DNA of 64,000 nt from Thiobacillus sp. 63-78 (GTDB lineage: Bacteria > Pseudomonadota > Gammaproteobacteria > Burkholderiales > Thiobacillaceae): positions 1 to 64,000 of the forward strand of contig MKWM01000031.1 of the NCBI GenBank assembly GCA_001899765.1, in the 5' to 3' direction. How positions within the stretch are numbered: the stretch's first letter is position 1; each line of letters begins with the position of its first letter. Position numbers and translations under genes: made by a program. The notes beneath the pieces were generated by a model. That model was not told the origin of the DNA and searched no databases. It was given only the letters and a program-made list of their open reading frames with translations. Shown here piece after piece: positions 343 to 12,668 of this stretch.

Positions 343-418
343 GTCCCCATCGTCTAGAGGCCTAGGACATCGCCCTTTCACGGCGGTAACCGGGGTTCGA
401 ATCCCCGTGGGGACGCCA
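343..418 (+). tRNA. tRNA-Glu (anticodon TTC), integration target
   Basis: A 76-nt cloverleaf is visible: acceptor stem GTCCCCA with TGGGGAC, anticodon loop CTTTCAC (TTC), GGTTCGAATCC T arm and encoded CCA. The 3' half from the anticodon loop onward is repeated at 12625-12668. It therefore served as the attachment site of the element to its right and remains a complete tRNA after integration. Confidence 0.96.
375..418 (+). repeat. attL: 3' half of tRNA-Glu
   Basis: This 44-bp segment starts at the anticodon loop (CTTTCA) and runs through the encoded CCA. It matches 12625-12668 with two substitutions, at 382 and 392. The last 26 bp (393-418) are identical in both copies. Starting in the anticodon loop is typical of phage-family tyrosine integrases. 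Confidence 0.9.
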
Positions 419-463
419 ATAAATCAGGCACTTAGCTTGGTTATCTTGGAAAAATCACTATCC

Positions 464-483
464 ATGTCAGCCATATGTCAGCC
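464..483 (+). promoter_or_regulatory. putative integrase arm-type sites near attL
   Basis: Two copies of ATGTCAGCC start 11 bp apart (464-472 and 475-483), about one helical turn. The same core ATGTCAGC recurs near attR at 12506-12513. Direct repeats flanking both ends are what integrase arm-binding sites look like. The assignment is an inference. Confidence 0.45.
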
Positions 484-711
484 AAGCATTCCCACGGCTG
501 GGCATTATTTCGGCTGCATCTCGTCTTTCGACCCTAGCCAAAACCTTACCGCTCTCGGGCTTTCATGCGCTCGGCGATGGTCGTCCCCTACTGAAGCTTT
601 CCCCCGTAATTCTTCACACGTCATAACGGTATAGTGCCCGACGTTCAAGGTCAGCCGGGCCGCGCGGGTACAATTCTGCGGCGTACGCAAATAATCAGAG
701 TAGGGGGAGTA

Positions 712-795
712 ATGGCAGAAAGCCAGACCGAGCTACGCGGGCAGATCACCACGGCTGTCGTGGTTGGGGGTCGGAGCATCCAAGTAACCCACTGA
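712..795 (+). CDS. possible 27-residue small protein
   Basis: An ATG preceded by AGGGGGAGTA opens a 27-codon frame whose product begins MAESQTELRG and ends GGRSIQVTH. A TACAAT hexamer at 669-674 could be a -10 box. It is the only plausible plus-strand gene in the element and opposes the long minus-strand operon. A 6-bp hairpin, ACCACG/CGTGGT, lies within it. It is too short to judge by codon use, and no family is recognised. Confidence 0.3.
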   Translation: MAESQTELRGQITTAVVVGGRSIQVTH

Positions 796-845
796 TCCGA
801 CTCCATAACGCGAATTCGCGCTTGGGTTGATTCGGAAATGAGAAA

Positions 846-910
846 GCCCCCGTCCGGTAAGTGCCTGGGGAGGCTTCCAAGAAGTCTAAGAACCAGCCTG
901 CGACGGGGAC
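846..910 (-). ncRNA. hairpin small RNA unit A
   Basis: On the minus strand, GTCCCCGTC at the 5' end pairs with GACGGGGGC at the 3' end (9 bp) and closes a 65-nt unit. Inside is a stem CTTC-TTG-GAAG. A TATACT -10 box (917-922) ends 6 nt before the first paired base, and TTTCTG (940-945) is 17 bp further upstream. A promoter would therefore start an RNA at the hairpin itself. The 3' flank CTTTCTCATTTCCG resembles that of unit B. There is no T-tract, so it is not a simple terminator, and no ORF fits. Confidence 0.5.
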
Positions 911-916
911 TCGATT

Positions 917-945
917 AGTATAGCGTCTTCGTCTCGGTGCAGAAA
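917..945 (-). promoter_or_regulatory. sigma70-type promoter of unit A
   Basis: Reading the minus strand, TTTCTG at 945-940 and TATACT at 922-917 are separated by exactly 17 bp. The predicted start is at or within 1 nt of the first base of hairpin A. Equivalent -10 hexamers precede unit B (TATACT, 1030-1035), unit C (TACTAT, 1131-1136) and unit D (TATGAT, 1227-1232), with weaker -35 regions. Confidence 0.5.
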
Positions 946-951
946 TGAGGA

Positions 952-1023
952 AGCCCGCAACGAACCCATGCTGCCGATTGATCGGCCCCCAGGCTCTCAA
1001 CGTCCAAGACGACTTCACGGGCT
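952..1023 (-). ncRNA. hairpin small RNA unit B
   Basis: A 72-nt minus-strand unit is closed by AGCCCG/CGGGCT. Inside are CGTC-TTG-GACG, like the inner stem of unit A but with a compensated base pair, and a GCCGA-TCAA-TCGGC hairpin. TATACT (1030-1035) ends 6 nt before it. The 3' flank CTTCCTCATTTCTG matches that of unit A and includes that unit's -35 hexamer, so the units are packed head to tail. Confidence 0.45.
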
Positions 1024-1060
1024 GAATTCAGTATAGCGGAATACTGAACAGGAAAAGGCA

Positions 1061-1120
1061 CCCCCACGGGGATTCCTGCCTTTCGACCGGAACCTCTACG
1101 CCCGAAGCGTGCCGTGGGGG
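1061..1120 (-). ncRNA. three-way-junction small RNA unit C
   Basis: On the minus strand, P1 is CCCCCACGG/CCGTGGGGG (1112-1120 with 1061-1069). P2 is ACGC-TTCGG-GCGT (1098-1110). P3 is GGTTCC with GGAATCC, with a bulged T, around a 12-nt loop (1077-1088). The P2 loop TTCG is complementary to CGAA in the P3 loop, which allows a kissing contact. A TACTAT -10 lies at 1131-1136. Unit D has the same fold with different stem sequence. Confidence 0.55.
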
Positions 1121-1159
1121 ATGCGGGGCCATAGTAATCCATAGCTACAGGAATTAGGA

Positions 1160-1220
1160 GCCCCCCAGCGGACCACTGCCTTTCGACCGCGGCCTCTACG
1201 CCCGAAGCGTGGTGGGGGGC
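1160..1220 (-). ncRNA. three-way-junction small RNA unit D
   Basis: It has the same architecture as unit C, exactly 100 bp away. P1 is GCCCCCCA/TGGGGGGC, P2 is identical (1198-1210), and P3 is GGCCGC with GTGGTCC around the identical 12-nt loop (1177-1188). P3 differs from unit C at three pairs but stays paired and keeps the same bulged T. A TATGAT -10 (1227-1232) ends 6 nt before the RNA. The unit begins just past the operon terminator. Confidence 0.55.
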
Positions 1221-1241
1221 AAGCTCATCATAGCACCATGC

Positions 1242-1267
1242 AAAAAAATCCCGGCACGCGGCCGGGA
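1242..1267 (-). terminator. Rho-independent terminator of the element operon
   Basis: On the minus strand, TCCCGGC-CGCGT-GCCGGGA forms a 7-bp GC-rich stem followed by seven T residues (1242-1248). It lies 50 bp past the stop of the last operon gene and separates the operon from the small-RNA array. Confidence 0.85.
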
Positions 1268-1317
1268 CAGGAGGGGGGCCATGGGTTTAACCACCCCCTA
1301 GGAGCGCACCTTGGTAT

Positions 1318-1662
1318 TCAGTACGTCATCTCGATCTCCGCGAGCGTGGTGACCAGCTCCAGCGCCGTCATGTCCAGGCATTGCAGCGCGTCGTGCGGCA
1401 GCCCTTCCAGCAGCTGGCGGTCTTCCTCGCTGATCTCATCGACCATGATCCGGCCGGCCAGGGCCAGAAGCTTGTCCGAGTGCCAGCGGTAATTCGACAG
1501 CCCCGGGAATCCGGGCTCGCCGTATCGCGGCCGATCATCGGGCAGCGCCTCGCGCAGTACGGAGAGGAGCCGACGCATCGCCAGCTGCTGGCCGTCATCA
1601 ACCGGGGACCGTGCCCGCATCGCGGCTTCCAGCGCCGCCAGGCGTTGTTCGAGCGTGGCCAT
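1318..1662 (-). CDS. element protein of unknown function (last operon gene)
   Basis: This 114-residue acidic, helical protein has its ATG preceded by GGAGGGCGACGC. It begins MATLEQRLAALEA, nearly the same N-terminus as the gene just upstream (MATLEQRIRALEV), so the two look like diverged duplicates sharing a coiled-coil start. The upstream gene overlaps it by 65 bp. It is followed by the operon terminator. No functional family is recognised. Its position after the tape measure would suit a tail or regulatory accessory protein. Confidence 0.65.
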   Translation of the reverse strand: MATLEQRLAALEAAMRARSPVDDGQQLAMRRLLSVLREALPDDRPRYGEPGFPGLSNYRWHSDKLLALAGRIMVDEISEEDRQLLEGLPHDALQCLDMTALELVTTLAEIEMTY

Positions 1663-1909
1663 GCGTCGCCCTCCATTCTTCGACCAGCGGCGTCAGGTCG
1701 CAGCACAGCTCGGCGTCGGACTTGTGCATCGCGACAAGCCGCTCTTCCTCTTCCACGCTGGCAAACCATTCGCCGCGGTCCATCAGCATCTGGATAACGC
1801 CTTCCAGCTCTTCGTCGGTCAGGTCGCGGGCTGTGGTGCCAGTTCTCCCTTCCGGGCCGCTCAGCCGCCGCACCTCCAGTGCTCGAATCCGTTGCTCAAG
1901 TGTTGCCAT
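1598..1909 (-). CDS. element protein of unknown function
   Basis: This 103-residue protein has an ATG with GGGGAAACA just upstream. It is acidic in the middle (DLTDEELEGVIQMLMDRGEW) and more basic and Gly-rich at its C-terminus. It overlaps the preceding gene by 14 bp and the following one by 65 bp. The N-terminal MATLEQRxxALE matches its downstream neighbour. I infer a small accessory protein of the tail region. Function is unknown. Confidence 0.6.
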   Translation of the reverse strand: MATLEQRIRALEVRRLSGPEGRTGTTARDLTDEELEGVIQMLMDRGEWFASVEEEERLVAMHKSDAELCCDLTPLVEEWRATHGHARTTPGGAGSRDAGTVPG

Positions 1910-2171
1910 TGTTTCCCCTTTCCAGCGCGGCGATGCGCTTATCCAGATCGCAGGCCTCAAACAACTTGCGCAGCTCACCCAGGACGTACACCAGGCGCGC
2001 GCCGTCCTGGGAAGGGACGCGCCCACCCCGCATGTCTCGATACACCCGCGCCATCTCCCGCCTCAGCCCGTCCAGATCGTTCAGGTTGATGCGGGGGGCA
2101 GGCAACACGACAAGCGCCGCCTGCTTGCCGCCTGGCGCCCGGTCGTTTGTGGAATCAGGCCGCTTTGCCAT
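1896..2171 (-). CDS. element protein of unknown function
   Basis: This 91-residue protein starts at an ATG behind GGGAGGGAGGC. The central section (LNDLDGLRREMARVYRDMRGG, split by one aromatic) and the C-terminus (ELRKLFEACDLDKRIAALER) look like amphipathic helices. Its position directly after the tape measure and the coupled short ORF suggests it belongs to the structural operon. No family is recognised. Confidence 0.6.
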   Translation of the reverse strand: MAKRPDSTNDRAPGGKQAALVVLPAPRINLNDLDGLRREMARVYRDMRGGRVPSQDGARLVYVLGELRKLFEACDLDKRIAALERGNNGNT

Positions 2172-2241
2172 GCCTCAGCCTCCCTCCCCGCGCAGTCTGA
2201 ACAGCTCGATCTCGCGGATGGATTACCTTGTCGGTGCTCAT
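2155..2241 (-). CDS. possible 28-residue coupled ORF after tape measure
   Basis: An ATG at 2241 overlaps the tape-measure stop in an ATGA junction, like most junctions in this operon. It opens a 28-codon frame beginning MSTDKVIHPRD and ending in a basic tail. It overlaps the start of the next gene by 17 bp. Support comes only from the junction pattern, and it could be a translational relay rather than a functional protein. Confidence 0.3.
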   Translation of the reverse strand: MSTDKVIHPRDRAVQTARGGRLRHGKAA

Positions 2242-4493
2242 TTGATCCCGTTCCTGTATGCGTTTCGGATGGCCTCGATCAAGACAGGCTGATTGTTCAT
2301 AAACAAGTCCCTGACCCCCTGCGTGTCGTGCGATGTGATGTGCACATGAATGTCGCCACCGCTTGCGCCTTCGCCTTCGCCATCCGCCAAAGCGCGGATG
2401 ACGTCGGCCTGTTTCGCTGGCAATACCATCTCACGCGCATGCAGTTGCGTGAGGGGGTTCACGCCTGCGGGGATGTCGTAGCCGCCGGCGGCTGAGGCGG
2501 TAGGGGACATCATTGCTGCGAACCCCATGGAGGCTGCCGACATGGCGGCGCCGAAGAATGGCGCGGTCAGGTTGATCGGGTAAGGTGCTGCTGCCATCGA
2601 TGCCACCCCCCCGGCGCCAGCCTTGGCCGCGCTCTCGGAAATCTCAGACAGGGCTGTTTTCTTGCCGAGGATCAGCATGGCGATCTTGCTCGCGAGCCAC
2701 TTCGCGAGCACCTGCGCGATAACGCCCGCGATGGTCGAGAGCACCGACTGCCAGATCGATTTGAGACCTTGGGCAAGCGTCATCTGGCCCATCATCATTT
2801 TCTGGAAAGCGTTCTGCATGCTGCCCTGCAAGCTACCGATCGCCTGCAAGGCATACTGGTTGCGCTCCAACTCGCCGGCATTCTTGATCTCCGTCATGAT
2901 GGCCTGGTGCTGACGCTCGGCGGCCTCGATCTCGGCCTTGAGTTGGGCGTAGGCCACCGGGTCTTCCGAAGGGTCGATCATGGCCAGGCGCTCGTTCATG
3001 GCCTGCAGGATGATCTCGTTCCGCCGCTGCTCGAACCCGATTTGCTGCTGCAGCAGTTCCTCATGGGTCATGAGGCCCATATCGACCGCATGATGGGCGG
3101 CCGCCTCATCGGCGTCTACCACTGCCAGGCGCGCGTCGAGCGCGTTCCGCATCCAGATCATGTCTACCTGAATCTTCTGCTCCGTCGCACGTTTGTGGGC
3201 GTCCGCTGCCGCCTTCGCGGCTTTGTCGGCTTCGCGCACCATGTCGCCCTGTAGAGCATTCACCGCGTCGAACTGCTGGCGGATCATCTCGGCGACGCCC
3301 TTGTCACCGGTGACGAATGATCCGTTGTCGAACACGTCGATTGGGCTGTCTGCCTTCTTGCTTTTGCCCTTATTGCCCGATGCGTCCGGCGGTGCCTGAA
3401 AGTCATTGCCGCCCTCAGCCGGCGCGTTCGAAGCCGTGAACTGCTGGCGGAACTTGCCGAGGAAGGAATCGCCGGTGCCGTTCCACAGATCTTTCAGCTT
3501 CTGCGTTTCGCGCACTGCATCGGCCGCGCGCTCCCGGAACACGTTCATCGCGCCGGCGAAGTCCCCGCGCAGTGCCAGTGCTGCAGCAGCTGCCACCGCA
3601 CCGATGTCGGAGCCGACCGAGACGAAGGCTTGCTTCACCATTCGCGCGAGATCGACCACGCCCAGGAAGGTTTCCATCGCCACCCGGGCGATCTTCACCA
3701 ACGCGGGACCCACTGCGACGATACTTTCCTTAAACGCCGTCAGCACGGGGATGATGGCTCGCCCGATGGTGTCCCGAACCGCCTTCATGGTCAGGTCGGC
3801 ATCGTCGCTGGCGTCATCGTATTTCTTCCATGCATCGACATCTTCCTGGCCCACGACGATGCCAAGCGCTTCCATTTTCTGCCTGGTTTCTTCGGCCTTC
3901 TCTGCGCTGGCCTGCAACAGCTTGGAGCTGCCGTTGACCGAGCGCCCAAAGATTTCCTGAGCCGCCGCGTTGCGGTCGGTTCCTTCCTTGTACGAGTTGA
4001 CGACCGCAATCGCGTCGAGCATGAGGTCATTCATGGGGCGCAGATTGCCAGCAGCATCACGGGTCTTGAGGCCCATGGCATTCAGGGCTTCCTCGTTTTC
4101 CCGCAGCTTCATGGTAAGCCCACGGCTGGCTGCCGACAGTTCCCACTGTGATGCCCCAATATCGTCGATCACCGCGATCCACACGCTGGCCTGGCTTGCC
4201 GAGACGCCCATCGCCCGGCCCAAGTCCATCGCGGATTCGGTGTACTTGGCAGTTTCGTCGGCAGCGTTCTTGATAGCGACGAAAGAGAACGCCGCTGCCG
4301 CAACTGCCGCCACGCTGGCGAAGGCAGACCGGACAGTGGTCGACATTACGGACATGCTGTCGCCAGCCGTCTTGAGGCTGCCATCCATCCGCTGAGCGCC
4401 GTTCTCGACGGACTGTGCAGCCTGATCCATGCCACGTTCCAGTTCGCCGAGGTTGGCTGTTACCCGTACTTCAATGTCGCTTCCGTTGTTCAT
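2238..4493 (-). CDS. phage tail tape measure protein
   Basis: This 751-residue protein has long helical, Ala/Gln-rich stretches. The N-terminal region (VTANLGELERGMDQAAQSV) is typical of tape-measure proteins, as is the section around residues 60-130 (FVAIKNAADETAKYTE, SASQASVWIAVIDDIG). Hydrophobic segments follow at about residues 570-600 and 625-660. The C-terminal REMVLPAKQADVIRAL and the final helix are also usual for this family. In phages the protein sets tail length and enters the cell during DNA injection. It overlaps the upstream gp10-like gene by ATGA. At this length it would suit a tail of roughly 110 nm if the usual scaling holds. Confidence 0.85.
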   Translation of the reverse strand: MNNGSDIEVRVTANLGELERGMDQAAQSVENGAQRMDGSLKTAGDSMSVMSTTVRSAFASVAAVAAAAFSFVAIKNAADETAKYTESAMDLGRAMGVSASQASVWIAVIDDIGASQWELSAASRGLTMKLRENEEALNAMGLKTRDAAGNLRPMNDLMLDAIAVVNSYKEGTDRNAAAQEIFGRSVNGSSKLLQASAEKAEETRQKMEALGIVVGQEDVDAWKKYDDASDDADLTMKAVRDTIGRAIIPVLTAFKESIVAVGPALVKIARVAMETFLGVVDLARMVKQAFVSVGSDIGAVAAAAALALRGDFAGAMNVFRERAADAVRETQKLKDLWNGTGDSFLGKFRQQFTASNAPAEGGNDFQAPPDASGNKGKSKKADSPIDVFDNGSFVTGDKGVAEMIRQQFDAVNALQGDMVREADKAAKAAADAHKRATEQKIQVDMIWMRNALDARLAVVDADEAAAHHAVDMGLMTHEELLQQQIGFEQRRNEIILQAMNERLAMIDPSEDPVAYAQLKAEIEAAERQHQAIMTEIKNAGELERNQYALQAIGSLQGSMQNAFQKMMMGQMTLAQGLKSIWQSVLSTIAGVIAQVLAKWLASKIAMLILGKKTALSEISESAAKAGAGGVASMAAAPYPINLTAPFFGAAMSAASMGFAAMMSPTASAAGGYDIPAGVNPLTQLHAREMVLPAKQADVIRALADGEGEGASGGDIHVHITSHDTQGVRDLFMNNQPVLIEAIRNAYRNGIK

Positions 4494-4981
4494 AGCAGTC
4501 TCCAGGTGGATGTACTCTCTTTCACGGCGTTCGCGAATTCCTCGCGGATGCGCGGCTCCATTTCCTTCAATGCGCTGCGCAGAAACGAGCGGGGCGGCAG
4601 GTCATCGGCCTTCAATGCAGGCTTGTTGGCTTTGAGCTTGGCCTTGAATCCCTCCCGATGTTTCTTCAGGTCGGCCTTGACCGACTGCCCGAACTCATGG
4701 AACTTCGCGTACTCGACGTTGGTGCCGACAATGCCCCGGACCTCGCGCCCGTTGTCTGTGATGCGATGGTTGATGGAGACGCGCAAGAGGCCGGTGCGGA
4801 CGTTCAGCACCTGCCCTGTGCCGGGACCAGACAGCTTCTCCAGTTTCACCTTCGTCAGCAGCTCAAGCACGAGGCTGCCGAGCGATTTGCTGACCGAGTC
4901 GTGCGTCCGCTTCCCTGCGTCCCTGAGATTCTTGGCGGTCTTCTTGGCGCCTTTGGCTGATCCCCTAAACATCTCCGCCAC
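4490..4981 (-). CDS. HK97 gp10/Mu gpG-like tail or virion morphogenesis protein
   Basis: This 163-residue basic protein contains GTNVEYAKFHEFG and PPRSFLRSALKEMEPRIREEF, the two signature regions of the HK97 gp10-like/virion-morphogenesis family, whose members act in tail completion or head-tail joining. It starts at GTG, and the alternative ATG at 4972 is too close to the ribosome-binding site. It overlaps the stop of the upstream chaperone-like gene by 17 bp and the tape-measure start by 4 bp. In siphoviruses gp10-like genes usually lie before the major tail gene, so the order here is unusual. Confidence 0.75.
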   Translation of the reverse strand: MAEMFRGSAKGAKKTAKNLRDAGKRTHDSVSKSLGSLVLELLTKVKLEKLSGPGTGQVLNVRTGLLRVSINHRITDNGREVRGIVGTNVEYAKFHEFGQSVKADLKKHREGFKAKLKANKPALKADDLPPRSFLRSALKEMEPRIREEFANAVKESTSTWRLL

Positions 4982-5294
4982 CCGTCGAGGCTTCGAGTGC
5001 CTTCCGCTTCAGCCCGAAAACGTCGAACACGCATGCCATCACCTCTTGCATGTTCTGAAGGTCGAGCAGGGCGGCAACGTCCTCGCGCGTCATGTCGGGG
5101 TAATTACGCTGCAGGGCGGCGTGCGCTGAATCGATTACGGTGCCGATGTACTCGGGGGTGATGCTGGCCTCGTCCATCGTTTCGAGGCGCCCTTGCAGCT
5201 GCTCCATTGCGCCCAGCGTCAGCGGCGGAATGATCAGGACGCGCCCATCGAAGTTGAAGGGGATGCCCTGGTGCTTGGTGGATTCGGGTTTCAT
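4965..5294 (-). CDS. tail assembly chaperone-like protein
   Basis: This 109-residue protein has an ATG overlapping the upstream stop (TGATG). The section VLIIPPLTLGAMEQLQGRLE, then MQEVMACVFDVFGLKRK, resembles the small tail assembly chaperones that precede tape-measure genes. Such proteins coat the tape measure before tail-tube polymerisation. No programmed frameshift extension of the lambda G/GT type is evident, because the gp10-like gene intervenes. The call is moderately secure from position and sequence style. Confidence 0.6.
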   Translation of the reverse strand: MKPESTKHQGIPFNFDGRVLIIPPLTLGAMEQLQGRLETMDEASITPEYIGTVIDSAHAALQRNYPDMTREDVAALLDLQNMQEVMACVFDVFGLKRKALEASTGGGDV

Positions 5295-5806
5295 CAGTAC
5301 ACCCCCGCGCGGCTTCCCGTGCGCTCGGTCAGCGCCGGAAGATTGACGTTGAGGGCCGCCGGCACGTTCGCATTGGTCAAAGAACCTGCAGAAGAGAACC
5401 ACCCATTTTGTACCATGTAATTGATCCATCCAGCAGACGTACCAGCCGGGAAGTCGGCTTCGAAGTAGCGATTCATGAAGATCGGCCCTCCAGGCAAGGG
5501 GGCGTTGTTGCCGCCGAGTTCGCTAATGCTGGACGCATTCTGAATTTCGACGCGGACCGTGGGCTGCGGTCCAGTGTGCGGGTGCGGAACGGATTCACTG
5601 ACAGGCGACAATGCCGCAGGCATCGAGAAAGAGCGCGTCGACGGGTCGATCAGGTCTCTGAGGTCCAGGCCGGCGATGTGGCCTGTTACGCCGGGACTCC
5701 CGGGGGTTGCACTGTCGATAGCGAGGCCGGCGACAAAGGCGCGCACGGGAACGCACCCAGTCATGATGCGATTGACCAGTTTGGAGGTTGCGCGGTAGAG
5801 GCTCAT
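5294..5806 (-). CDS. putative structural (tail) protein
   Basis: This 170-residue protein starts at an ATG behind AGGAAAACGAA. It is rich in Gly, Pro, Ser and Asn with few charged residues, as many virion proteins are, and includes FMNRYFEADFPAGTSAGWI. Its position immediately before the chaperone-like gene is where a major tail or tube gene normally sits. I do not recognise the family from sequence, so the structural role rests on position only. Confidence 0.5.
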   Translation of the reverse strand: MSLYRATSKLVNRIMTGCVPVRAFVAGLAIDSATPGSPGVTGHIAGLDLRDLIDPSTRSFSMPAALSPVSESVPHPHTGPQPTVRVEIQNASSISELGGNNAPLPGGPIFMNRYFEADFPAGTSAGWINYMVQNGWFSSAGSLTNANVPAALNVNLPALTERTGSRAGVY

Positions 5807-5835
5807 TTCGTTTTCCTTTCAGGTTCAGGTCAAGT

Positions 5836-6522
5836 TCAGGCGGTGCGCCAGCGGGCCAGGGCTTCGGATCGGGCTTGTTCGATGGCGCCTCGGGCGTCAA
5901 TGGTTTTCACGTTCAGGGAGTGCGGCGCGGACAGACCGAATCCGATGGCCACCACATCGAAGGTTCTCATCGGGTAGGCCGTCCCGATTCCCCCGGTCAT
6001 CACACCGTGGGTTTCCCTCAGTTCGCGGGCCAACTCACAGTGCGCAACGCCAAGCCCGGCCAGTCGGCCGTAGGCCTGCCCGAAGGTGTCGCAGGCAGCC
6101 AAGAAGGCAGGAAGAGCATCAAGCTGGATCTCTGCGGTAGCCGCCTCGAACTGCGCTTCAGCCAGGGCGCGCAGGGTGTCCGGCATCTGGGCATGCACCT
6201 CGGCCGCCTTCTGTTGCAGTTCGTCCAGCAGGTCGCGATGCGCTTCCATGACGGCGGCGGTCTGCTCGACGCTGGCCTCGGCCGTGGCAATCTGACGGCT
6301 CAGGTCGCGTGTCTGCTCGTCCTCCAGGTCTACGCGACCGGCGCGCAGCATCCGGGCGAACAGGCCCCGCCGTTGCTGCTTCAGGCCCTGCGCGGCGCTT
6401 GCTGCTTGCTGCACCGGCGCGATGCTCTGGTCAGCTTGGCGCATGGCTTCGTTGATGCTGGCCAGTTCGTCGGTTAGAGTCTTGAGTGCGGCGTGTGCCG
6501 CTTTGAGTTGTTCGGTTCGCAT
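5836..6522 (-). CDS. coiled-coil element protein of unknown function
   Basis: This 228-residue protein is chosen from the ATG at 6522, with AAAGGACG upstream; a GTG at 6540 is the alternative. Residues 1-165 are an almost uninterrupted amphipathic helix region with heptad spacing. The C-terminal 60 residues (TGGIGTAYPMRTFDVVAIGF, then NVKTIDARGAIE) look globular. It lies between the replication and tail genes. A scaffold-like or tail role is possible, but nothing specific is recognised. Confidence 0.6.
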   Translation of the reverse strand: MRTEQLKAAHAALKTLTDELASINEAMRQADQSIAPVQQAASAAQGLKQQRRGLFARMLRAGRVDLEDEQTRDLSRQIATAEASVEQTAAVMEAHRDLLDELQQKAAEVHAQMPDTLRALAEAQFEAATAEIQLDALPAFLAACDTFGQAYGRLAGLGVAHCELARELRETHGVMTGGIGTAYPMRTFDVVAIGFGLSAPHSLNVKTIDARGAIEQARSEALARWRTA

Positions 6523-6536
6523 GGGGATGCGTCCTT

Positions 6537-6701
6537 TCACAGAGATTGGGGTTGGGAATGTTCGACCGCATTCGCCAAAATGACCTCGCCGTTGCGCACG
6601 GCAATCGTGATTACGGTCACAGACTCCACCTTTTTCTGCGCATCTCGTTCTTCCGATACGGCCTGTTGGCTTTTGCCGATTGCTTGTTTCATGAGGCTCA
6701 T
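6537..6701 (-). CDS. small element protein of unknown function
   Basis: This 54-residue protein begins MSLMKQAIGKSQQAVSEER. A strong AAGGAG lies 6 nt before the ATG, and an ATGA overlap joins it to the upstream gene. The first half is a charged helix; the second half (SVTVITIAVRNGEVILANAV) is beta-like. No family is recognised. Confidence 0.55.
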   Translation of the reverse strand: MSLMKQAIGKSQQAVSEERDAQKKVESVTVITIAVRNGEVILANAVEHSQPQSL

Positions 6702-6943
6702 GCGTTTCTCCTTTGGGTGGTGGGTTGGATTTCCGGCATCGCAGCTGCCGGCAGGCTGTCGTGTGCCCTGGCGTGGCGCCGCAGCGCCCACAGCAGGTTC
6801 AACAAGTCGAGGGGATGGGTGATTTCCAGGGCCTTCGCCGCGTCGAGCGCAGCGGCCTCGGGGCTCATGCCGGGGCGCCAGTAGCACCAGGGCGGCACGT
6901 CTTCGATGCGGCCGCGGAAGGTGGCTTGGACGCGCTTAGTCAT
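6698..6943 (-). CDS. small element protein of unknown function
   Basis: This 81-residue protein begins MTKRVQATFRGRIEDVPPW. Its ATG overlaps the end of dnaB, so it is translationally coupled to the helicase. It contains a hydrophobic helix (LDLLNLLWALRRHARAH). A replication accessory role is possible from position alone. No family is recognised. Confidence 0.55.
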   Translation of the reverse strand: MTKRVQATFRGRIEDVPPWCYWRPGMSPEAAALDAAKALEITHPLDLLNLLWALRRHARAHDSLPAAAMPEIQPTTQRRNA

Positions 6944-8330
6944 CGAATCCTCCGGTGCGTCTGGCCGGGCGTGTGTTCTGCGCTGGGCGCGGCTGCTGCC
7001 CGCGGTAGTCGCTGAACCGCAGGCGCGGGGCGTCGTAATGCAGGGTGATGTCGCCAAGTGCGCCGTTCCGGTTCTTTCGCACGACCAGGCTGATCAGGTC
7101 TTGCCACTCGGGGCCATCGTTCCGATGCAGCATCATGATCACGTCGGCGTCGGCTTCGATGTCGCCGGACTCGCGCAGATCAGACATTTGTGGGCGCTTG
7201 TCGGTGCGTGACTCGACGCCCCGATTGATCTGCGCCAGTGCGATCACGGGCACGCGCAATTCCTTGGCCAGCGCCTTGAGGCCGCGCGAGATTCCGCCGA
7301 CTTCCTGCGTCCGGTTTTCGCCCGGACCCTTCATGAGCTGAAGGTAATCCACGACGATCAGCCCGAGGCCGTGCTGCCGCTTGATCTTTCGTGCCTTGGC
7401 GCGCGCGTAGGCGACGGAGACTCCAGGCCGGTCATCGATGAAGAGCGGCACGTCGGCGGTGTCACCACAGACGGAAGAGAGCCGCCGCCATCCCTCAGGC
7501 GAGGCGGTGCCACTGCGCATGTCGGACATGGATACCCCCGAGCGGCTGGCCATCAGCCGCATGGCGAGTTCCTGCCCGGTCATCTCCAGGGTGAAGAAAA
7601 TCGCCGGTGCCCCGGTGCTGGCGACGTGGTCGGCAATGTTGAGGGCGAGCGCGGTTTTCCCTACTGAAGGGCGAGCCGCCAGGATCACCAGCTGTCCCGG
7701 CTCCAGGCCGCCGGTGATCCAATCGATGTTCTCGAACCCGGTCGGCTGGCCGGCGAGTTTTCCGCCACGCTCCCGGCGGCTATCGATCTCGCGCAGCGCC
7801 CCGCGGATTGCGTCATGAACCCGTACCGGTTCGCCGCCCTGGCGATCGAGTAGCTGCGCCATCGCCAATTCGGCCTCTGTGGCGATTTTTTCAATGTCCT
7901 TGGGGCCAGGGCTCATGCAAGCCTCTTCCATGCGCGTGGCGACCCCATAGAGGCCGCGCATGATGGATTTCTCTCGCACGATCTCGGCGTACCGGTGAAG
8001 GTTGGCCGCGCTTGGTGTGTTGCTCGCCAGCGCGACGATGTACTGAAGCCCGCCGACGCTCTCCAACTCGCCCAGGTTCTGCATGGCCTCGGCGACCGTC
8101 ACGGCGTCAACCGGCTTGCCCGAATCGCCGAGCGCCTTCATCGCGCTGAAAATCCGGCGGTGATCATCGCGGTAGAAGTCCGCCGCGGTCATCACGCCTT
8201 CGACTCGATCCAGAGCGCCGGCACCGGCAATCAACAGGCCGCCGAGCACGGCTTGTTCGGCTTCGACGGAGTGCGGGGGCTGGATGGCCAATGCCGGAAT
8301 TCCGATGTCGGGTAGCGTGCGGGCGTTCAT
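6936..8330 (-). CDS. dnaB: replicative DNA helicase (DnaB family)
   Basis: This 464-residue protein has the usual length and layout of DnaB: an N-terminal domain (HSVEAEQAVLGGLL) and a RecA-like C-terminal domain. Walker A is ARPSVGKT (about 219-226), Walker B is LIVVDYLQLM, and the end includes SDLRESGDIEADADVIMMLHR. It would unwind the fork as a hexamer for element replication. Its ATG overlaps the stop of the upstream initiator-like gene. Carrying its own helicase suggests theta replication independent of host loading. It is distinct from a chromosomal dnaB, which normally lies near ribosomal protein genes. Confidence 0.93.
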   Translation of the reverse strand: MNARTLPDIGIPALAIQPPHSVEAEQAVLGGLLIAGAGALDRVEGVMTAADFYRDDHRRIFSAMKALGDSGKPVDAVTVAEAMQNLGELESVGGLQYIVALASNTPSAANLHRYAEIVREKSIMRGLYGVATRMEEACMSPGPKDIEKIATEAELAMAQLLDRQGGEPVRVHDAIRGALREIDSRRERGGKLAGQPTGFENIDWITGGLEPGQLVILAARPSVGKTALALNIADHVASTGAPAIFFTLEMTGQELAMRLMASRSGVSMSDMRSGTASPEGWRRLSSVCGDTADVPLFIDDRPGVSVAYARAKARKIKRQHGLGLIVVDYLQLMKGPGENRTQEVGGISRGLKALAKELRVPVIALAQINRGVESRTDKRPQMSDLRESGDIEADADVIMMLHRNDGPEWQDLISLVVRKNRNGALGDITLHYDAPRLRFSDYRGQQPRPAQNTRPARRTGGFDD

Positions 8331-9103
8331 GCCTCACCCCCATCGTGGTAATGGCCTTCGCGCACCTTGGCGAACTTCTCGGGCTTCAGCAGCCACTCCA
8401 GCGAAGCGGTGAAGGGCTTGCGGCCGGGCGTTGCCACCTTCCCTGTCAGGAAGTCGGATTCGGCAACGTAGCCGAACAGCCGGCGCCACCAATCGACGTT
8501 CTGGCGCTTCGGGTCTTCACGCCAGCGGGCTTGCAGGTGCGCAGCACGGGCCTTCGTCCAGTCCCTGATTCTGGGAGAGGCCGGTAAGGCTTCGTGATAG
8601 GCATCGATGATTTCCTGGTGCGGGCAGGGCGGGATTTTCCTCTTGCCCTGAGCAGCGGTTGTTGCTGCGTCGGCATGCTTGCCGACAATAGTACTGACGG
8701 TTATTGATGGTTCTATGATGGTTTGGGTGTCATGGGTGACACCCGTCTCGCGTCTTCCATGACACCCGTCTGCGTCTTCCACGACACCCGTGTCATGCGC
8801 GACACCCGTGTCATGCGCGACACCCGTCAGGCTGTGCAGGTTGATCCGATATTGCCGGGTTGCCCCAGGCTTGCCCCCGAACTCGTTTCCAACTACCGAG
8901 ACGAATCCCGCCTCGATCAGCTGGTGCACGACGCGCTGCGCCTGCCGTGGCTTGAGGCGAACCTTTCGCGAGATGGACGTCATGGATGGATAGCATCGGC
9001 CGTTGTCATCGCTCCAGTCAGCCAAGGCCAGCAGGGTGAGCAACTCCGAGCCGCCGTCGACGTGTGCGCAATCCCAGACCATGGACATGATCCGGATGCT
9101 CAT
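8327..9103 (-). CDS. winged-helix replication initiator-like protein
   Basis: This 258-residue protein is taken from the ATG that overlaps the previous stop. The N-terminal 100 residues form a helix-turn-helix domain (CYPSMTSISRKVRLKPRQAQ, then VVHQLIEAGFVSVV), as in lambda O-type initiators and phage helix-turn-helix replication proteins. The middle contains repeated GVxHDTG peptides encoded by DNA iterons. The C-terminal half (about 160-258) resembles helicase-loader or DnaT-like regions. It lies directly before dnaB. I infer that it binds the internal iterons and recruits the helicase. Confidence 0.75.
   Translation of the reverse strand: MSIRIMSMVWDCAHVDGGSELLTLLALADWSDDNGRCYPSMTSISRKVRLKPRQAQRVVHQLIEAGFVSVVGNEFGGKPGATRQYRINLHSLTGVAHDTGVAHDTGVVEDADGCHGRRETGVTHDTQTIIEPSITVSTIVGKHADAATTAAQGKRKIPPCPHQEIIDAYHEALPASPRIRDWTKARAAHLQARWREDPKRQNVDWWRRLFGYVAESDFLTGKVATPGRKPFTASLEWLLKPEKFAKVREGHYHDGGEA
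8725..8827. repeat. iteron-like repeats inside the initiator gene (candidate origin)
   Basis: GACACCCGT occurs five times, starting at 8738, 8761, 8783, 8801 and 8819, at intervals of 23, 22, 18 and 18 bp. The first copy is part of a perfect 8-bp inverted repeat, GGGTGTCA/TGACACCC, at 8725-8744. The placement mirrors lambdoid phages, where the origin iterons lie within gene O. Confidence 0.6.
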
Positions 9104-9303
9104 ACGGCGGCCTTCCCGCCAGTGAGCATGAGAAGCTCCCGCAGGCACTCGCGCTTCGCTTCCATGACTTCCGCGGGCGAGGATGATGGGCGCTTGATAA
9201 CTACAGAGAGCAGGGCGGCGCGGACGTAATGCGGGTCCGGCTTACCGATGCTCTGGCTTACCGCGAACTCGAAGGCGCTGAGCAGTTCGGGCGGGCGGCG
9301 CAT
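9100..9303 (-). CDS. small element protein of unknown function
   Basis: This 67-residue protein has an ATG one base after the AlpA-like stop, and its end overlaps the initiator start by ATGA. It is largely helical (RPPELLSAFEFAVSQSIG, AEVMEAKRECLRELLML). It sits between a transcription regulator and the replication initiator. No family is recognised. Confidence 0.55.
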   Translation of the reverse strand: MRRPPELLSAFEFAVSQSIGKPDPHYVRAALLSVVIKRPSSSPAEVMEAKRECLRELLMLTGGKAAV

Positions 9304-9304
9304 G

Positions 9305-9508
9305 TCAGGCCGCCTTGCGACTGGACTCGATCTTGGCTTTCAGCCAGTCGTCGATCTCAGACTCGACGAATCCGACACGGCGCTCGGTGATGCTCACAGA
9401 CTTGGGGAATTCCCCCTGTTTTTGGAGTGCATAGACCGCGCTGCGCGACATGCTGGTGCGGCTGAGCACTTCGCGCAGGCTGATGATTCGGGTGGTGGAT
9501 TGATTCAC
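9305..9508 (-). CDS. AlpA-family excisionase/transcriptional regulator
   Basis: This 67-residue protein starts at a GTG with AGGAGG five bases upstream, which decides it over a longer ATG frame from 9541. It shows the AlpA MerR-like helix-turn-helix (ISLREVLSRTSMSRSAVYAL) and the typical end (ESEIDDWLKAKIESSR). Family members act as excisionases or activators of integrase or late genes in P4-like elements. It begins a new transcription unit immediately after a terminator. Confidence 0.85.
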   Translation of the reverse strand: MNQSTTRIISLREVLSRTSMSRSAVYALQKQGEFPKSVSITERRVGFVESEIDDWLKAKIESSRKAA

Positions 9509-9552
9509 TTGAGCCTCCTTTTCTCGCTTCAGAGGCTCCAAAATGAATACCC

Positions 9553-9581
9553 AAAAAAACCCCCGTCAACATCCAACGGGG
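9553..9581 (-). terminator. Rho-independent terminator inside the element
   Basis: On the minus strand, CCCCGT-TGGATGTTG-ACGGGG is followed by G and seven T residues. It lies 11 bp past the stop at 9593 and upstream of the AlpA-like gene. It splits the element into an integrase-proximal unit and a replication/tail unit. Confidence 0.8.
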
Positions 9582-9592
9582 TGTTATTGGTG

Positions 9593-10177
9593 TTATGGGG
9601 ATTTCTTGGAGAACTTAAATTTATGCTTCGGGCCGCTGCCTCTCTTCGGATACTCGGGCCGCTGATCGAATCCGAAGCTCAGCCCCTTCATTTCGATATA
9701 GCGCCCTGTCCATCGAGAAACACCGTCGACAGTCTCGAATTCGGGCTGTAGCTTCACCGTTTCCCTCACCCGGAGACAGTCAGGGGTTCGCGTTATTTGA
9801 ACCCACTGGACCGGCTCTTCAAGCGTTCTGAACAAACCGATGGAATACGTGATCGGCGACTTATCCGGCTGATACTGCGACAGAACATTGTCGACCTCGG
9901 TCGCTGACAGTGGGGTATCCGGAAAGCAGTCTTTCCATTCGATGATCGCCACCTCTATAGCTTGCTTCCTGGCCTTGCCGCTGGCAATCCGCTCACGCTC
10001 GACCACTTCCAGCACAAAGCAATCACGAAGGAACATCCATGCCGGCCGTGCATCCGGATTCATGCCTTTGCTGGCCTTGCTGGGGCGCCCGCCCTTATTC
10101 TTCTTGAGGCCGGGCGACGTCGCCCTAAGTAAGTCAAGTGTAGATTTCATTCTGCTGTCTTTTGGGTGGCCGCTCAC
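9593..10177 (-). CDS. element early protein of unknown function
   Basis: This 194-residue protein uses a GTG start with AGGTGGGG upstream; an ATG at 10150 is the alternative. The N-terminus is basic (GLKKNKGGRPSKASKG, AT-hook-like) and so is the C-terminus (KRGSGPKHKFKFSKK), which suggests nucleic-acid contact. The middle contains WMFLRDCFVLEVVERERI. It is the last gene before a strong terminator. No family is recognised. Confidence 0.6.
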   Translation of the reverse strand: MSGHPKDSRMKSTLDLLRATSPGLKKNKGGRPSKASKGMNPDARPAWMFLRDCFVLEVVERERIASGKARKQAIEVAIIEWKDCFPDTPLSATEVDNVLSQYQPDKSPITYSIGLFRTLEEPVQWVQITRTPDCLRVRETVKLQPEFETVDGVSRWTGRYIEMKGLSFGFDQRPEYPKRGSGPKHKFKFSKKSP

Positions 10178-10188
10178 GCGCGCCCCAC

Positions 10189-10470
10189 CTACCGGCGTCG
10201 AAACTCGAAAGCGCGCACACCGCCAGCCTTCGCGAACACCATACCAGCATCGGCCTTGCCGACCAGGTGCAAAATCCGGTCATGACGATCGCTCACAGTA
10301 GGATCGAACCGGGCGAACTTCGGCAGCTCGATATTCTGGCCAGCCGCCCAGAAGCGGGTTTCCTGGGTGATGCTGTGATAGCGAGCGAGCAGCGCCTGCT
10401 GCTCCTGGACGATCTCCCACAGTTCTTCAACGGTCGGGGCCTGTGATGCGGTGGGCTGCTTGCTGGTCAT
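10189..10470 (-). CDS. element early protein of unknown function
   Basis: This 93-residue protein begins MTSKQPTASQAPTVEELWE. It starts at an ATG behind GGGAGGAAACG and overlaps the preceding stop by ATGA. A helical segment (ELWEIVQEQQALLARYHSI) is followed by a mixed C-terminus. The function is unknown. Confidence 0.6.
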   Translation of the reverse strand: MTSKQPTASQAPTVEELWEIVQEQQALLARYHSITQETRFWAAGQNIELPKFARFDPTVSDRHDRILHLVGKADAGMVFAKAGGVRAFEFRRR

Positions 10471-11120
10471 TGATCGTTTCCTCCCACAACGGTTTGGAGC
10501 ATAGGTGCCGGCTGCTTCCGAAACGGGATCACATTGGCATCGTCCCGAATCAGCCCGACCGCCTTCCCGACGTCGCGAACGCATGTCGGCATGTACTTGT
10601 CCCGTAGCTTCTGATCCATGACGAAGCGCTCCGTCTGGAGGAGGTGCTTCATTTCGTCGATCAACCCAAGGAACCGACTGGACGCGTCATCATTCAGCCG
10701 GTAGCCACCTCGGTATCCGTCAACCATCATGCTCTCCATCCCCAAGAGGGTGGCGTCAGCAGTCTTAAGCGCCTCGTATCTGTACGCATCAACCGTCGCG
10801 GCCCATGAATTCACAAAGGCATGGGCGCGCTTGATTCTTTTTTCGCGAGCACGTTGCGCCTCAAGAAATATCGTTTCTTCCTCGCTCCAGTCCCTCCATA
10901 CCCAGAATGTCGTCTTGGAGCTACGACGTATGAGGATTGGGCGTCCATGCGGGTCGGTCGTGTTGCAGACGGTCTTCTTCTCGCCGGGATCCCCGGGGAA
11001 CGGTCCTTCGCGTGTGATGCCGTGGTGCACCAGGGCTTCCCGGGTCCCGCGGGCAAAGTGGTGGTGCAGATGTTTCTCGGTCGTGATTCTGAGTGAACGG
11101 CTAGAATGACGTGCAGCCAT
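10467..11120 (-). CDS. element early protein of unknown function
   Basis: This 217-residue protein begins MAARHSSRSLRITTEKH. The start is chosen because AGGAGA lies 7 nt upstream of this ATG; an upstream frame to 11180 lacks a site. It has a His-rich N-terminus, a central segment with TTFWVWRDWSEEETIFLEA, and helices toward the end. It is the first gene of the leftward unit after integrase. No family is recognised. Confidence 0.6.
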   Translation of the reverse strand: MAARHSSRSLRITTEKHLHHHFARGTREALVHHGITREGPFPGDPGEKKTVCNTTDPHGRPILIRRSSKTTFWVWRDWSEEETIFLEAQRAREKRIKRAHAFVNSWAATVDAYRYEALKTADATLLGMESMMVDGYRGGYRLNDDASSRFLGLIDEMKHLLQTERFVMDQKLRDKYMPTCVRDVGKAVGLIRDDANVIPFRKQPAPMLQTVVGGNDQ

Positions 11121-11216
11121 GATGCAATCTCCTATACAGCTTGCTTTGTGGTCAGGGCGGAGGGTGTTAACGGCACCCATCCCGCCCGCTTTACCTGATG
11201 CCGTCAGGCGGCGGTG

Positions 11217-12485
11217 TTACCTTTTCCCGATCGCCCTCACCTTCGTGTCCGGCTTGTGGCCGAATGACGGCAGCAGCGTTCGCACGGTGTTGGCGAGTGT
11301 CTTGTCGCACAGGTGCGCATAGTGCCGGCTGGTGATGCGCGTATCGGCGTGCCCCAGCAGCTTCGAAATCGTCAACAGATCGGCGCCGGCCTGCGCCAGC
11401 AGCGAGGCGTAGGTGTGCCGCAGGTCATGGAATCCGACAGCGGGCTCGATCTTCGCCCGTGTGCAGGCTTCCTTGAGTGGGCGGACGTGATGATTCTTCC
11501 CCCACGGCGCACCATCGGCGCGCGTGAAAACGTGTTCACCCCCCACCTTGCCAGCGACAGCAGACCGGAAGAAATCGAGACCATCGTCGGACAGCGGAAC
11601 GTGGCGGCCCTTGCCGCTCTTGGCTTCGGCGCTGACGTACACCATCCCGGTGTCGAGGTTCACGTCCGCGACCTTCATGCGCGTCAGCTCCCCGCAGCGG
11701 CAGCCGGTGAAGAGGGCGGCCTTCACCAGCGGACGGAAATCAGCCGCGCAGGCATTCACCAGGCGCGATGACTCGGCATCGGTCAGGAAGCGCGTCACGG
11801 GCTCGTCGACGTTCTCGAAGGGCTTGACCCGGCGCCACGCGGTGTCATCGCTTACCATCCCGTCCTGGAATGCCCGGTTCAGGATCGCTTTCAACACCGC
11901 CAGGATGCGATTCGCCGTCGACTTGCGCGCGCGCTTTTCCTCGACCGTCGCCGGCTTCCCGCGGTGTGCCTGCTTCGCCAGTGTGCGTGTGCGCTTGCGC
12001 GCCGGGGTCGAGGCAAGCCGCTCATGCCAGCGGCGCAGCGTCGGGCTGTCCAGATCCATCAGCAGACGGTCGCCCAGCGTCGGCAGGATGTGCGCGCTGA
12101 TCGTCGCCTCGGTCTCGCGCACCGACTTCCGGTTTTCCCGGAACCAATCCATGTAGTGCGCGGCGCCGGCTTCCACCGTGACGGGGCGGCCGGCGATGAC
12201 CTTCGACTCCTGCGCGAGGTCCCGGGCTTTCTGCTGCGCCTGGGAGAAGTTCAGCACGGTCTCACCGTCCGCGTCCTGGAAGTCGTCGGCGTTGCCCAGC
12301 TTGCGGTAAGCCTCGCGCCCATCGATCCCGACCACTCGGGCCGACCAGGTGCCGAAGCCCGAGACGGTGCGCCGGTACATCAGGGACAGCCCGCCGGTGA
12401 TCGGCAGGAAATAGCGCTTCCCCGTCTCCAGCTTGAGCCGGCTCGTCCGGGTTTCCAGTCTTGCATCACGCGCAGCCCTTGCCAT
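11217..12485 (-). CDS. int: site-specific tyrosine recombinase (integrase)
   Basis: This 422-residue phage integrase has an N-terminal arm-binding region, a core-binding SAM-like domain (about 100-225) and a catalytic domain (235-410). The catalytic residues are visible: Arg263 in GCRCGELTRM, a beta-hairpin Lys near 289, His353 and Arg356 in HDLRHTYAS, His379 in LLGHADTR, and the nucleophile Tyr389 in SRHYAHL. It is complete and sits 140 bp from attR. It would integrate and excise the element at tRNA-Glu. Confidence 0.95.
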   Translation of the reverse strand: MARAARDARLETRTSRLKLETGKRYFLPITGGLSLMYRRTVSGFGTWSARVVGIDGREAYRKLGNADDFQDADGETVLNFSQAQQKARDLAQESKVIAGRPVTVEAGAAHYMDWFRENRKSVRETEATISAHILPTLGDRLLMDLDSPTLRRWHERLASTPARKRTRTLAKQAHRGKPATVEEKRARKSTANRILAVLKAILNRAFQDGMVSDDTAWRRVKPFENVDEPVTRFLTDAESSRLVNACAADFRPLVKAALFTGCRCGELTRMKVADVNLDTGMVYVSAEAKSGKGRHVPLSDDGLDFFRSAVAGKVGGEHVFTRADGAPWGKNHHVRPLKEACTRAKIEPAVGFHDLRHTYASLLAQAGADLLTISKLLGHADTRITSRHYAHLCDKTLANTVRTLLPSFGHKPDTKVRAIGKR

Positions 12486-12624
12486 CGCCTCTCCGTGTCA
12501 GTCACATGTCAGCGGAATGTCCCCGGACATGTGCGGACATTATAGGACACAAAAACCCGTATATCTATGGCTATAGCGGCTTTACGGGTGTTCGTGCTTG
12601 TCCGCCGCTGTCCGAGATACAACA
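12486..12624. promoter_or_regulatory. attP arm and integrase promoter region
   Basis: This non-coding stretch between the integrase start and attR holds ATGTCAGC (12506-12513), the same core as the attL arm repeats. It also holds the palindrome TGTCC-CC-GGACA and a second GGACATT, forming overlapping inverted repeats around 12514-12541. These could be integrase or Xis sites or an operator controlling int. TATAGG- and TATAGC-like hexamers occur nearby. Confidence 0.45.
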
Positions 12625-12668
12625 CTTTCACAGCGGTAACCTGGGTTCGAATCCCCGTGGGGACGCCA
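12625..12668 (+). repeat. attR: partial tRNA-Glu copy
   Basis: This 44-bp copy of the tRNA-Glu 3' half begins at the anticodon loop and ends in CCA. It differs from the intact tRNA at two positions, and the last 26 bp are identical. It lacks the 5' half and so cannot make a tRNA. It marks the right end of the element. Confidence 0.9.

What the first reader, a model, noticed from the sequence alone, without database searches (positions are those of the whole stretch)
846..1232. Tandem array of four hairpin RNA units, each behind its own -10 box, at the left end of the element
Seen: four minus-strand hairpins (846-910, 952-1023, 1061-1120, 1160-1220) are separated by 37-41 bp, and each is preceded by a -10 hexamer (TATACT, TATACT, TACTAT, TATGAT). 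In three of four the hexamer ends exactly 6 nt before the first paired base, so transcription would begin at the stem. The array follows the operon terminator and contains no gene. Inference: a multicopy family of small structured RNAs made by the element, perhaps controlling a helper phage, host RNA metabolism, immunity or packaging. I know of no named RNA class with this arrangement.
Basis: partly seen in the sequence, partly recalled or inferred. Interest (0 to 1): 0.82.

Follow-up and report, generated by a model that had tools for sequence, protein, structure and literature searches.

The report
Orphan array of phage-toxin-linked small RNAs
A small virus-like element carries four folded RNA units; RNAs sharing a hairpin with three of them sit, in other phages, beside the gene for a predicted RNA-cutting toxin of the phage head, suggesting that they are antidotes to that toxin.

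Summary
Four minus-strand hairpin units, each with a -10-like box 5-6 nt before its closing stem, lie at 846-1232; the same detector finds 0.13 such units per 387 bp per strand over the whole window. Units 3 and 4 belong to an RNA family with no Rfam match: six members, three-way junction, six pairs with compensatory changes, G-U pairs almost only on the minus strand. Other members lie in three related satellites and, antisense, directly 3' of a portal-MuF-PBECR3 gene in a phage contig. PBECR3 is a predicted phage RNase domain. The hairpin CGYYNYGGRCGTW (units 2-4) lies antisense 10-85 nt past the PBECR3 domain in 12 of 15 testable PBECR3 loci (10 exact), against 0 of 13 MuF loci without PBECR3. 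A thirteenth locus has the orphan Rfam family skipping-rope there. The window's genome has no PBECR3 match. Best reading: an orphan array of RNA immunity factors against virion-borne RNase toxins. The association is shown; neutralisation is inferred. Main rival: an exclusion RNA that the injected RNase destroys. Unit 1 remains unassigned.

The parts
393..418 (+). left attachment repeat (3' part of tRNA-Glu)
   Evidence: 26-bp exact repeat with 12643-12668; tRNA-Glu 343-418
846..910 (-). unit 1, hairpin; -10 TATACT at 917-922; no exact hairpin motif, no relatives found
952..1023 (-). unit 2, predicted three-way-junction RNA; -10 TATACT at 1030-1035; hairpin motif at 999-1011, same bases CGTCTTGGACGTTGAG as in PBECR3 locus L368
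1061..1120 (-). unit 3, member of RNA family R1; -10 TACTAT at 1131-1136; hairpin motif 1097-1109
1160..1220 (-). unit 4, member of RNA family R1; -10 TATGAT at 1227-1232; hairpin motif 1197-1209
1248..1268 (-). terminator-like hairpin of the operon that precedes the array
2238..4493 (-). tape measure protein gene, used to find related elements
   Evidence: PHROG tail length tape measure, E 4e-25; relatives
11217..12485 (-). tyrosine recombinase (integrase) of the element
   Evidence: NCBIfam tyrosine recombinase matches, below their curated cut-offs
12643..12668 (+). right attachment repeat; the element is about 12.3 kb

Best explanation
The array is a set of orphan RNA immunity factors. Each unit is a small transcription unit for a folded RNA of about 60-70 nt. 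RNAs with the same hairpin are encoded antisense at the 3' end of phage PBECR3 genes, most of them MuF-PBECR3 head proteins whose predicted RNase domain is thought to be injected with the phage DNA. A lysogen would make the RNA from its own promoter and so neutralise the RNase, probably by substrate mimicry at the conserved hairpin. The satellite has kept several diverged RNAs without any toxin, so its host would resist RNase-bearing phages. Shown: structure, strand and family for units 3 and 4, and the linkage of the hairpin to PBECR3. Inferred: transcription, binding, neutralisation, protection.
For: Covariation in R1. Strand: 128 of 135 cells paired on the minus strand, 21 of them G-U; 109 on the other strand; 2 A-C cells. 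An R1 member antisense 3' of a portal-MuF-PBECR3 gene in L053. A second RNA, with 10 predicted pairs changed on both sides among four sequences, antisense at the 3' end of four more PBECR3 genes. Hairpin motif antisense in 12 of 15 testable PBECR3 loci, against 0 of 13 MuF genes in which Pfam finds MuF and no PBECR3, and 10 of 178 other antisense stretches of the PBECR3 loci within one mismatch, 0 exact. L375 folds in the same P1-hairpin-P3-P1' order as R1. L376, without the motif, has skipping-rope antisense in the slot. No PBECR3 match in the own genome. MuF toxin genes are usually followed by a small ORF taken to be immunity (PMC5576092, passages); PBECR are predicted RNases, likely injected (PMC5512222, passages). 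The same cargo slot in relative L005 holds a PADLOC candidate defence protein.
Against: No expression or activity data. Full-length models do not join the RNAs: R2 finds L373 and L379 but nothing in the window, L003, L004, L033, L053, L367, L368, L374, L375, L376, L381, L060 or L068; R1 finds among 14 PBECR3 loci only L382 (13.4 bits, E 0.091) and the bare hairpin of L381 (8.4 bits, E 2.4). In 6 of the 12 positives (L367, L368, L369, L371, L379, L382) the motif lies within or at the end of the PBECR3 reading frame as I read it, so coding could account for part of its conservation there; in the other six it lies past the stop. Unit 1 lacks the motif. L374, L376 and L377 lack it. One control, L063, has the motif exactly on the sense strand. 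In phages the RNA could act on its own mRNA. No helper capsid was found in 56 genus genomes (no positive control).
Confidence: 0.48

Rival explanations
1. The RNA is itself an exclusion (defence) RNA made by prophages and satellites, and the injected PBECR3 RNase is the counter-weapon that destroys it in a resident lysogen. The satellite array would be defence cargo rather than an antidote.
For: Same linkage data. PMC5512222 suggests that PBECR diversity may answer a host RNA-based restriction (passages). The array sits in a cargo slot that holds a candidate defence gene in L005.
Against: No target for such an RNA is known; MuF toxin genes are usually followed by a presumed immunity gene.
Confidence: 0.2
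2. A structure-dependent small RNA with another partner (host or phage RNA-binding protein, packaging or regulation), carried as a moron; the PBECR3 link reflects a shared insertion site.
For: The MuF 3' slot accepts other insertions: L065 has an extra ORF there, and L068, with an LPD3 domain, has an unrelated hairpin behind a -10 box.
Against: The motif is at 12 of 15 PBECR3 loci and at none of 13 MuF loci without PBECR3, and also beside a solo PBECR3 gene (L381).
Confidence: 0.16
3. Antisense silencing of a helper phage: satellite RNA pairs with the late mRNA between the portal-MuF-PBECR3 and protease genes.
For: Unit 3 is 88.7% identical over 71 nt to the antisense strand of L007, so it could pair with that mRNA.
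Against: Stems covary while loops stay nearly fixed, which costs complementarity; unit 4 has changed stems; no phage relative of units 1 and 2 was found in capped scans.
Confidence: 0.1
4. DNA element (packaging or replication hairpins) or a series of terminators, not RNA genes.
For: Palindromic stems and tandem copies; the terminator scan flags sites inside units 2 and 3, with 3 found against a mean of 1.2 in shuffles.
Against: G-U pairs almost confined to one strand, which also argues against a double-stranded DNA role; -10-like boxes at a near-fixed distance.
Confidence: 0.05

Closest known systems
skipping-rope RNA (Rfam RF02924)
   Same: Multi-helix sRNA of unknown function (recalled) that occurs in phages; in L060 a GATAAT box abuts its closing stem; it lies antisense about 30 nt past the stop of an extended portal-MuF gene (L060) and of a PBECR3 gene (L376)
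   Different: No model match to the window units at the gathering score or in the relaxed scans
type III toxin-antitoxin systems (ToxIN, CptIN, TenpIN; recalled)
   Same: Folded RNA, often in tandem, expected to neutralise an RNase
   Different: RNA family, toxin family and delivery differ; the RNA is antisense to the toxin gene, and the satellite has no PBECR3
MuF polymorphic toxins with presumed immunity genes (PMC5576092, passages read)
   Same: Same toxin scaffold and same downstream slot as the presumed immunity gene
   Different: Immunity would be an RNA, not a small protein
tandem non-identical esaG immunity genes (PMC9484751, start of abstract in a listing only)
   Same: String of non-identical antidote genes
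   Different: Those are proteins of type VII secretion systems

Membership tests
R1 RNA family (defined here) | Match to covariance model R1 | tested here: met
   Units 3 and 4: 96.8 and 84.9 bits (both are in the training set); units 1 and 2 not matched
PBECR3-linked RNA group (defined here) | Hairpin CGYYNYGGRCGTW behind a -10-like box | tested here: met
   Units 2, 3 and 4 exact; the only three exact sites in the 64-kb window on either strand. These units helped to define the pattern. Unit 1 not met
PBECR3-linked RNA group (defined here) | Adjacent PBECR3 gene | tested here: not met
   No PBECR3 match in the own genome at E 1e-5: the array is an orphan
skipping-rope RF02924 | Score above the gathering threshold | tested here: not met
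   No match in the window
type III toxin-antitoxin | RNase toxin gene directly downstream of the RNA repeats | tested here: inconclusive
   Own genome lacks PBECR3, but ORFs between the array and tRNA-Glu were not profile-tested and ToxN-type toxins were not searched
type III toxin-antitoxin | RNA neutralises the RNase | not testable with these tools
   Needs expression and binding tests
tRNA or tRNA-like RNA | Similarity to tRNAs beyond chance | tested here: not met
   58 tRNAs not selected by the pattern: a 14-nt tRNA-Glu match for unit 3 and L007 (2 and 1 of 300 shuffles as good); units 1, 2, 4 and L003 at chance

The most novel reading that the evidence does not exclude
There is a general class of RNA immunity to RNase toxins carried in phage heads: several unrelated RNA folds, including the long-orphan skipping-rope RNA, are made antisense at the 3' end of MuF/PBECR toxin genes and neutralise their product, and phage satellites collect such RNAs as tandem orphan antidote arrays.
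Probability: 0.38. Interest if true: 0.93.

Novelty: new variant of a known kind. Interest (0 to 1): 0.85.

Why it matters
If true, it would be an RNA-based immunity for virion-delivered polymorphic toxins, it would give a directly testable role to skipping-rope RNA, and it would show phage satellites carrying RNA antidotes as cargo. It also turns an unnamed array into a simple two-component test: one RNase domain, one RNA.

Tried and rejected
tRNA mimicry: an 18-nt match to tRNA-Leu looked strong, but those tRNAs had been selected by the same pattern; with 58 tRNAs not so selected it vanished.

Sequence relatives of units 1 and 2: two 14-base scans of viral contigs stopped at their limit of 120 rows each, so they are incomplete; the best contexts looked like chance.

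Weak R1 hits: L046 and L047 lie inside coding frames; L084, L085 (25.6 and 24.4 bits), pattern hits L082, L083 and two hits of 18.2 and 17 bits in the genome of L006 (not looked at further) were taken as chance, the first four by reading their sequence only. R1 in 117 family, 369 class and 300 order genomes gave otherwise only the own array. No match in the phages collection or the plasmids collection.

A kissing-loop structure sent was out of register by one column; the result is discarded. Skipping-rope in 321 class genomes: one sub-threshold hit, not followed up.

The 148-157 aa gene beside the unit in L003, L004 and L033 has no significant match: Pfam (L033 and L004 proteins), PADLOC, NCBIfam and PDB sequences (L033 protein).

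First pass of the PBECR3 test measured from the gene stop, used a wrong frame for L053 and missed L382, giving 4 of 8 in the second set; measured from the domain end it is 5 of 8. The change was made after R1 had hit L382.

Full report
What is there. The array lies between a terminator-like hairpin of a minus-strand operon and tRNA-Glu, at one end of an integrated element bounded by a 26-bp exact repeat at 393-418 and 12643-12668. The operon carries an integrase, a DnaB helicase, an HK97-gp10-like protein and a tape measure protein. A detector finds them as the only 400-bp stretch of the window with more than two such units; the whole-window rate, array included, is 0.127 per 387 bp per strand. 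Folding energy alone is unusual only for unit 3.

It is an RNA family. Units 3 and 4 share a core. A tape measure search found related elements L003 and L004 (viral contigs) and L005 and L006 (genome contigs); pattern scans added L033 and L007. L003, L004 and L033 carry one unit each after the operon terminator and before a 148-157 aa gene; in L004 about 700 bp separate terminator and unit. L005 and L006 have no R1 match. The six-member alignment supports P1 - hairpin P2 - P3 - P1' with 94.8% of 135 cells paired and six pairs changed on both sides, 0 of 500 shuffles reaching either. On the minus strand 128 of 135 cells pair, 21 as G-U; on the plus strand 109 pair. So the minus strand is the likely functional strand. 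No Rfam family matches at its gathering score. A -10-like box is present in the satellites (TATCAT) and the phage (TAGACT). In an alignment, units 1-4 and L007 also share a few bases of a pyrimidine-rich tail after P1.

The phage context. L007 belongs to a 42-kb contig of what looks like a siphophage. Its unit is antisense in the gap between a portal-MuF-PBECR3 fusion gene and a prohead protease gene. In relatives of that fusion without a C-terminal extension the gap before the next gene is at most 65 nt, apart from L065, which has an extra ORF there. Two with extensions have other antisense hairpins behind a -10 box in the same gap: L060 (L061 is a second contig with the same genes), whose hairpin is Rfam skipping-rope (37.2 bits, gathering 36.7), and L068, with an LPD3 domain.

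The PBECR3 link. A search for PF18812 in 303 class genomes gave six loci, L367-L372. In four of them (L369-L372; Mu-like by my reading of the next gene, MuF confirmed by Pfam for L369 and L370) a -10-like box and a conserved RNA lie antisense at the 3' end of the PBECR3 gene, with ten predicted pairs changed on both sides among the four sequences. Its hairpin CGU-UNCGG-ACG-UAG resembles P2 of R1 and the P2 of unit 2. I wrote the pattern CGYYNYGGRCGTW from L369-L372, R1 and unit 2, and then scanned. L367 and L368, not used in writing it, have it exactly. A second set came from 398 phylum genomes (L373-L378 new) and phage records (L379 = RC1, L380 = RS1 with the same motif, L381, L382). L378 ends just past the domain and is not counted; L380 is counted with L379. 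Of 15 testable loci, 12 have the motif antisense 10-85 nt past the domain end, 10 exactly and 2 (L373, L375) with one mismatch; the negatives are L374, L376 and L377. By set: five of five used to write the pattern (L053, L369-L372), two of two of the others in hand, five of eight in the second set. In six of the twelve (L367, L368, L369, L371, L379, L382) the motif lies within or at the end of the reading frame as I read it; in the other six it lies past the stop. Controls: 0 of 13 MuF genes with a Pfam MuF and no Pfam PBECR3 have it antisense within one mismatch, two of the 13 (L056, L059) being close relatives, and one (L063) has it exactly on the sense strand. Of 660 consecutive 500-nt stretches of those 13 loci, both strands, 27 have it within one mismatch and 2 exactly. 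Elsewhere in the PBECR3 loci, 10 of 178 antisense stretches have it within one mismatch, 0 exactly. The window has three exact sites, units 2, 3 and 4.

The negatives. L376 has skipping-rope (43.9 bits) antisense just past the PBECR3 gene, as L060 does past its MuF gene. L374 has TATATT and a 9-bp closed hairpin antisense in the slot, seen by eye only. L377 scores below the Pfam cut-off and showed nothing. In the positives a -10-like hexamer 10 nt or less before the closing stem can be read in ten of twelve (partly by eye); in L368 none is clear, and in L382 it is about 15 nt away.

How far the homology goes. Full-length models do not unite the RNAs: R2 (from L369-L372) finds L373 and L379 but nothing in the window, the satellites, L053, L367, L368, L375 or L381, and R1 finds among 14 PBECR3 loci only L382 weakly and the bare hairpin of L381. 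L375 and, by the R1 alignment, L382 have the R1 order of helices, although the free fold of the L382 piece does not show the small hairpin; in the Mu-type RNAs the hairpin comes after the second helix. I therefore claim a shared hairpin, layout and genomic slot, and not one alignable family.

Mechanism. PBECR domains are predicted RNases that are probably packaged and injected (PMC5512222, passages read). MuF toxin genes are usually followed by a small ORF taken as immunity: 89.4% of 191 against 25.5% of 952 short MuF genes (PMC5576092, passages read). Here the slot holds an antisense RNA unit. An RNA that blocks the RNase, made by the lysogen from its own promoter, explains the position, the orientation, the structure and why a toxin-free satellite would keep several diverged copies. 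This is inference. The main rival is that the RNA is the weapon and the RNase its counter. The cargo slot of L005 holds a DUF4238-Pers candidate defence protein, which fits either reading.

Novelty. Literature searches for PBECR, RNA-antitoxin and orphan-immunity terms, MuF polymorphic toxins, skipping-rope, and phage small RNAs and satellites listed no paper whose title or abstract start reports an RNA linked to these toxins; I read none of them whole. The library lacks the 2017 paper that I recall as defining skipping-rope, and two papers that mention it were read in passages only.

Noticed in passing
window 393-12668: The element looks like a phage satellite with a tail module (HK97-gp10-like, tape measure) and DnaB; among the operon ORFs that I tested no capsid or terminase gene was recognised. 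Relatives L003 and L033 carry a tRNA-Ser gene beside the cargo end.
   Followed up: partly
L005 11610-12623: In the same cargo slot a relative carries a DUF4238-Pers candidate defence protein (PADLOC E 3.5e-53).
   Followed up: partly
L003 4649-5095, L004 14071-14517, L033 328-801: A 148-157 aa gene of unknown function starts shortly after the RNA unit in three relatives; a 33% identical homologue in Photobacterium pDA100 is flanked by repeats that look like integron attC sites (by eye, recalled).
   Followed up: partly
L060 6130-6235 minus; L376 1322-1429 plus: Skipping-rope RNA (RF02924) lies antisense about 30 nt past the stop of an extended portal-MuF gene and of a PBECR3 gene.
   Followed up: partly
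L068 8641-8716 minus: A hairpin with a 14-pair stem behind TATGAT lies antisense past a portal-MuF-LPD3 gene; no Rfam match at the gathering score.
   Followed up: no
window 1061-1120 and 402-415: Unit 3 shares 14 identical bases with the tRNA-Glu 3' half inside the attachment repeat; 2 of 300 shuffles score as well, and unit 4 does not share it.
   Followed up: yes
window 1242-1287 minus: The operon terminator region gives a sub-threshold Rfam SorX match (22.1 bits, gathering 46.6).
   Followed up: no
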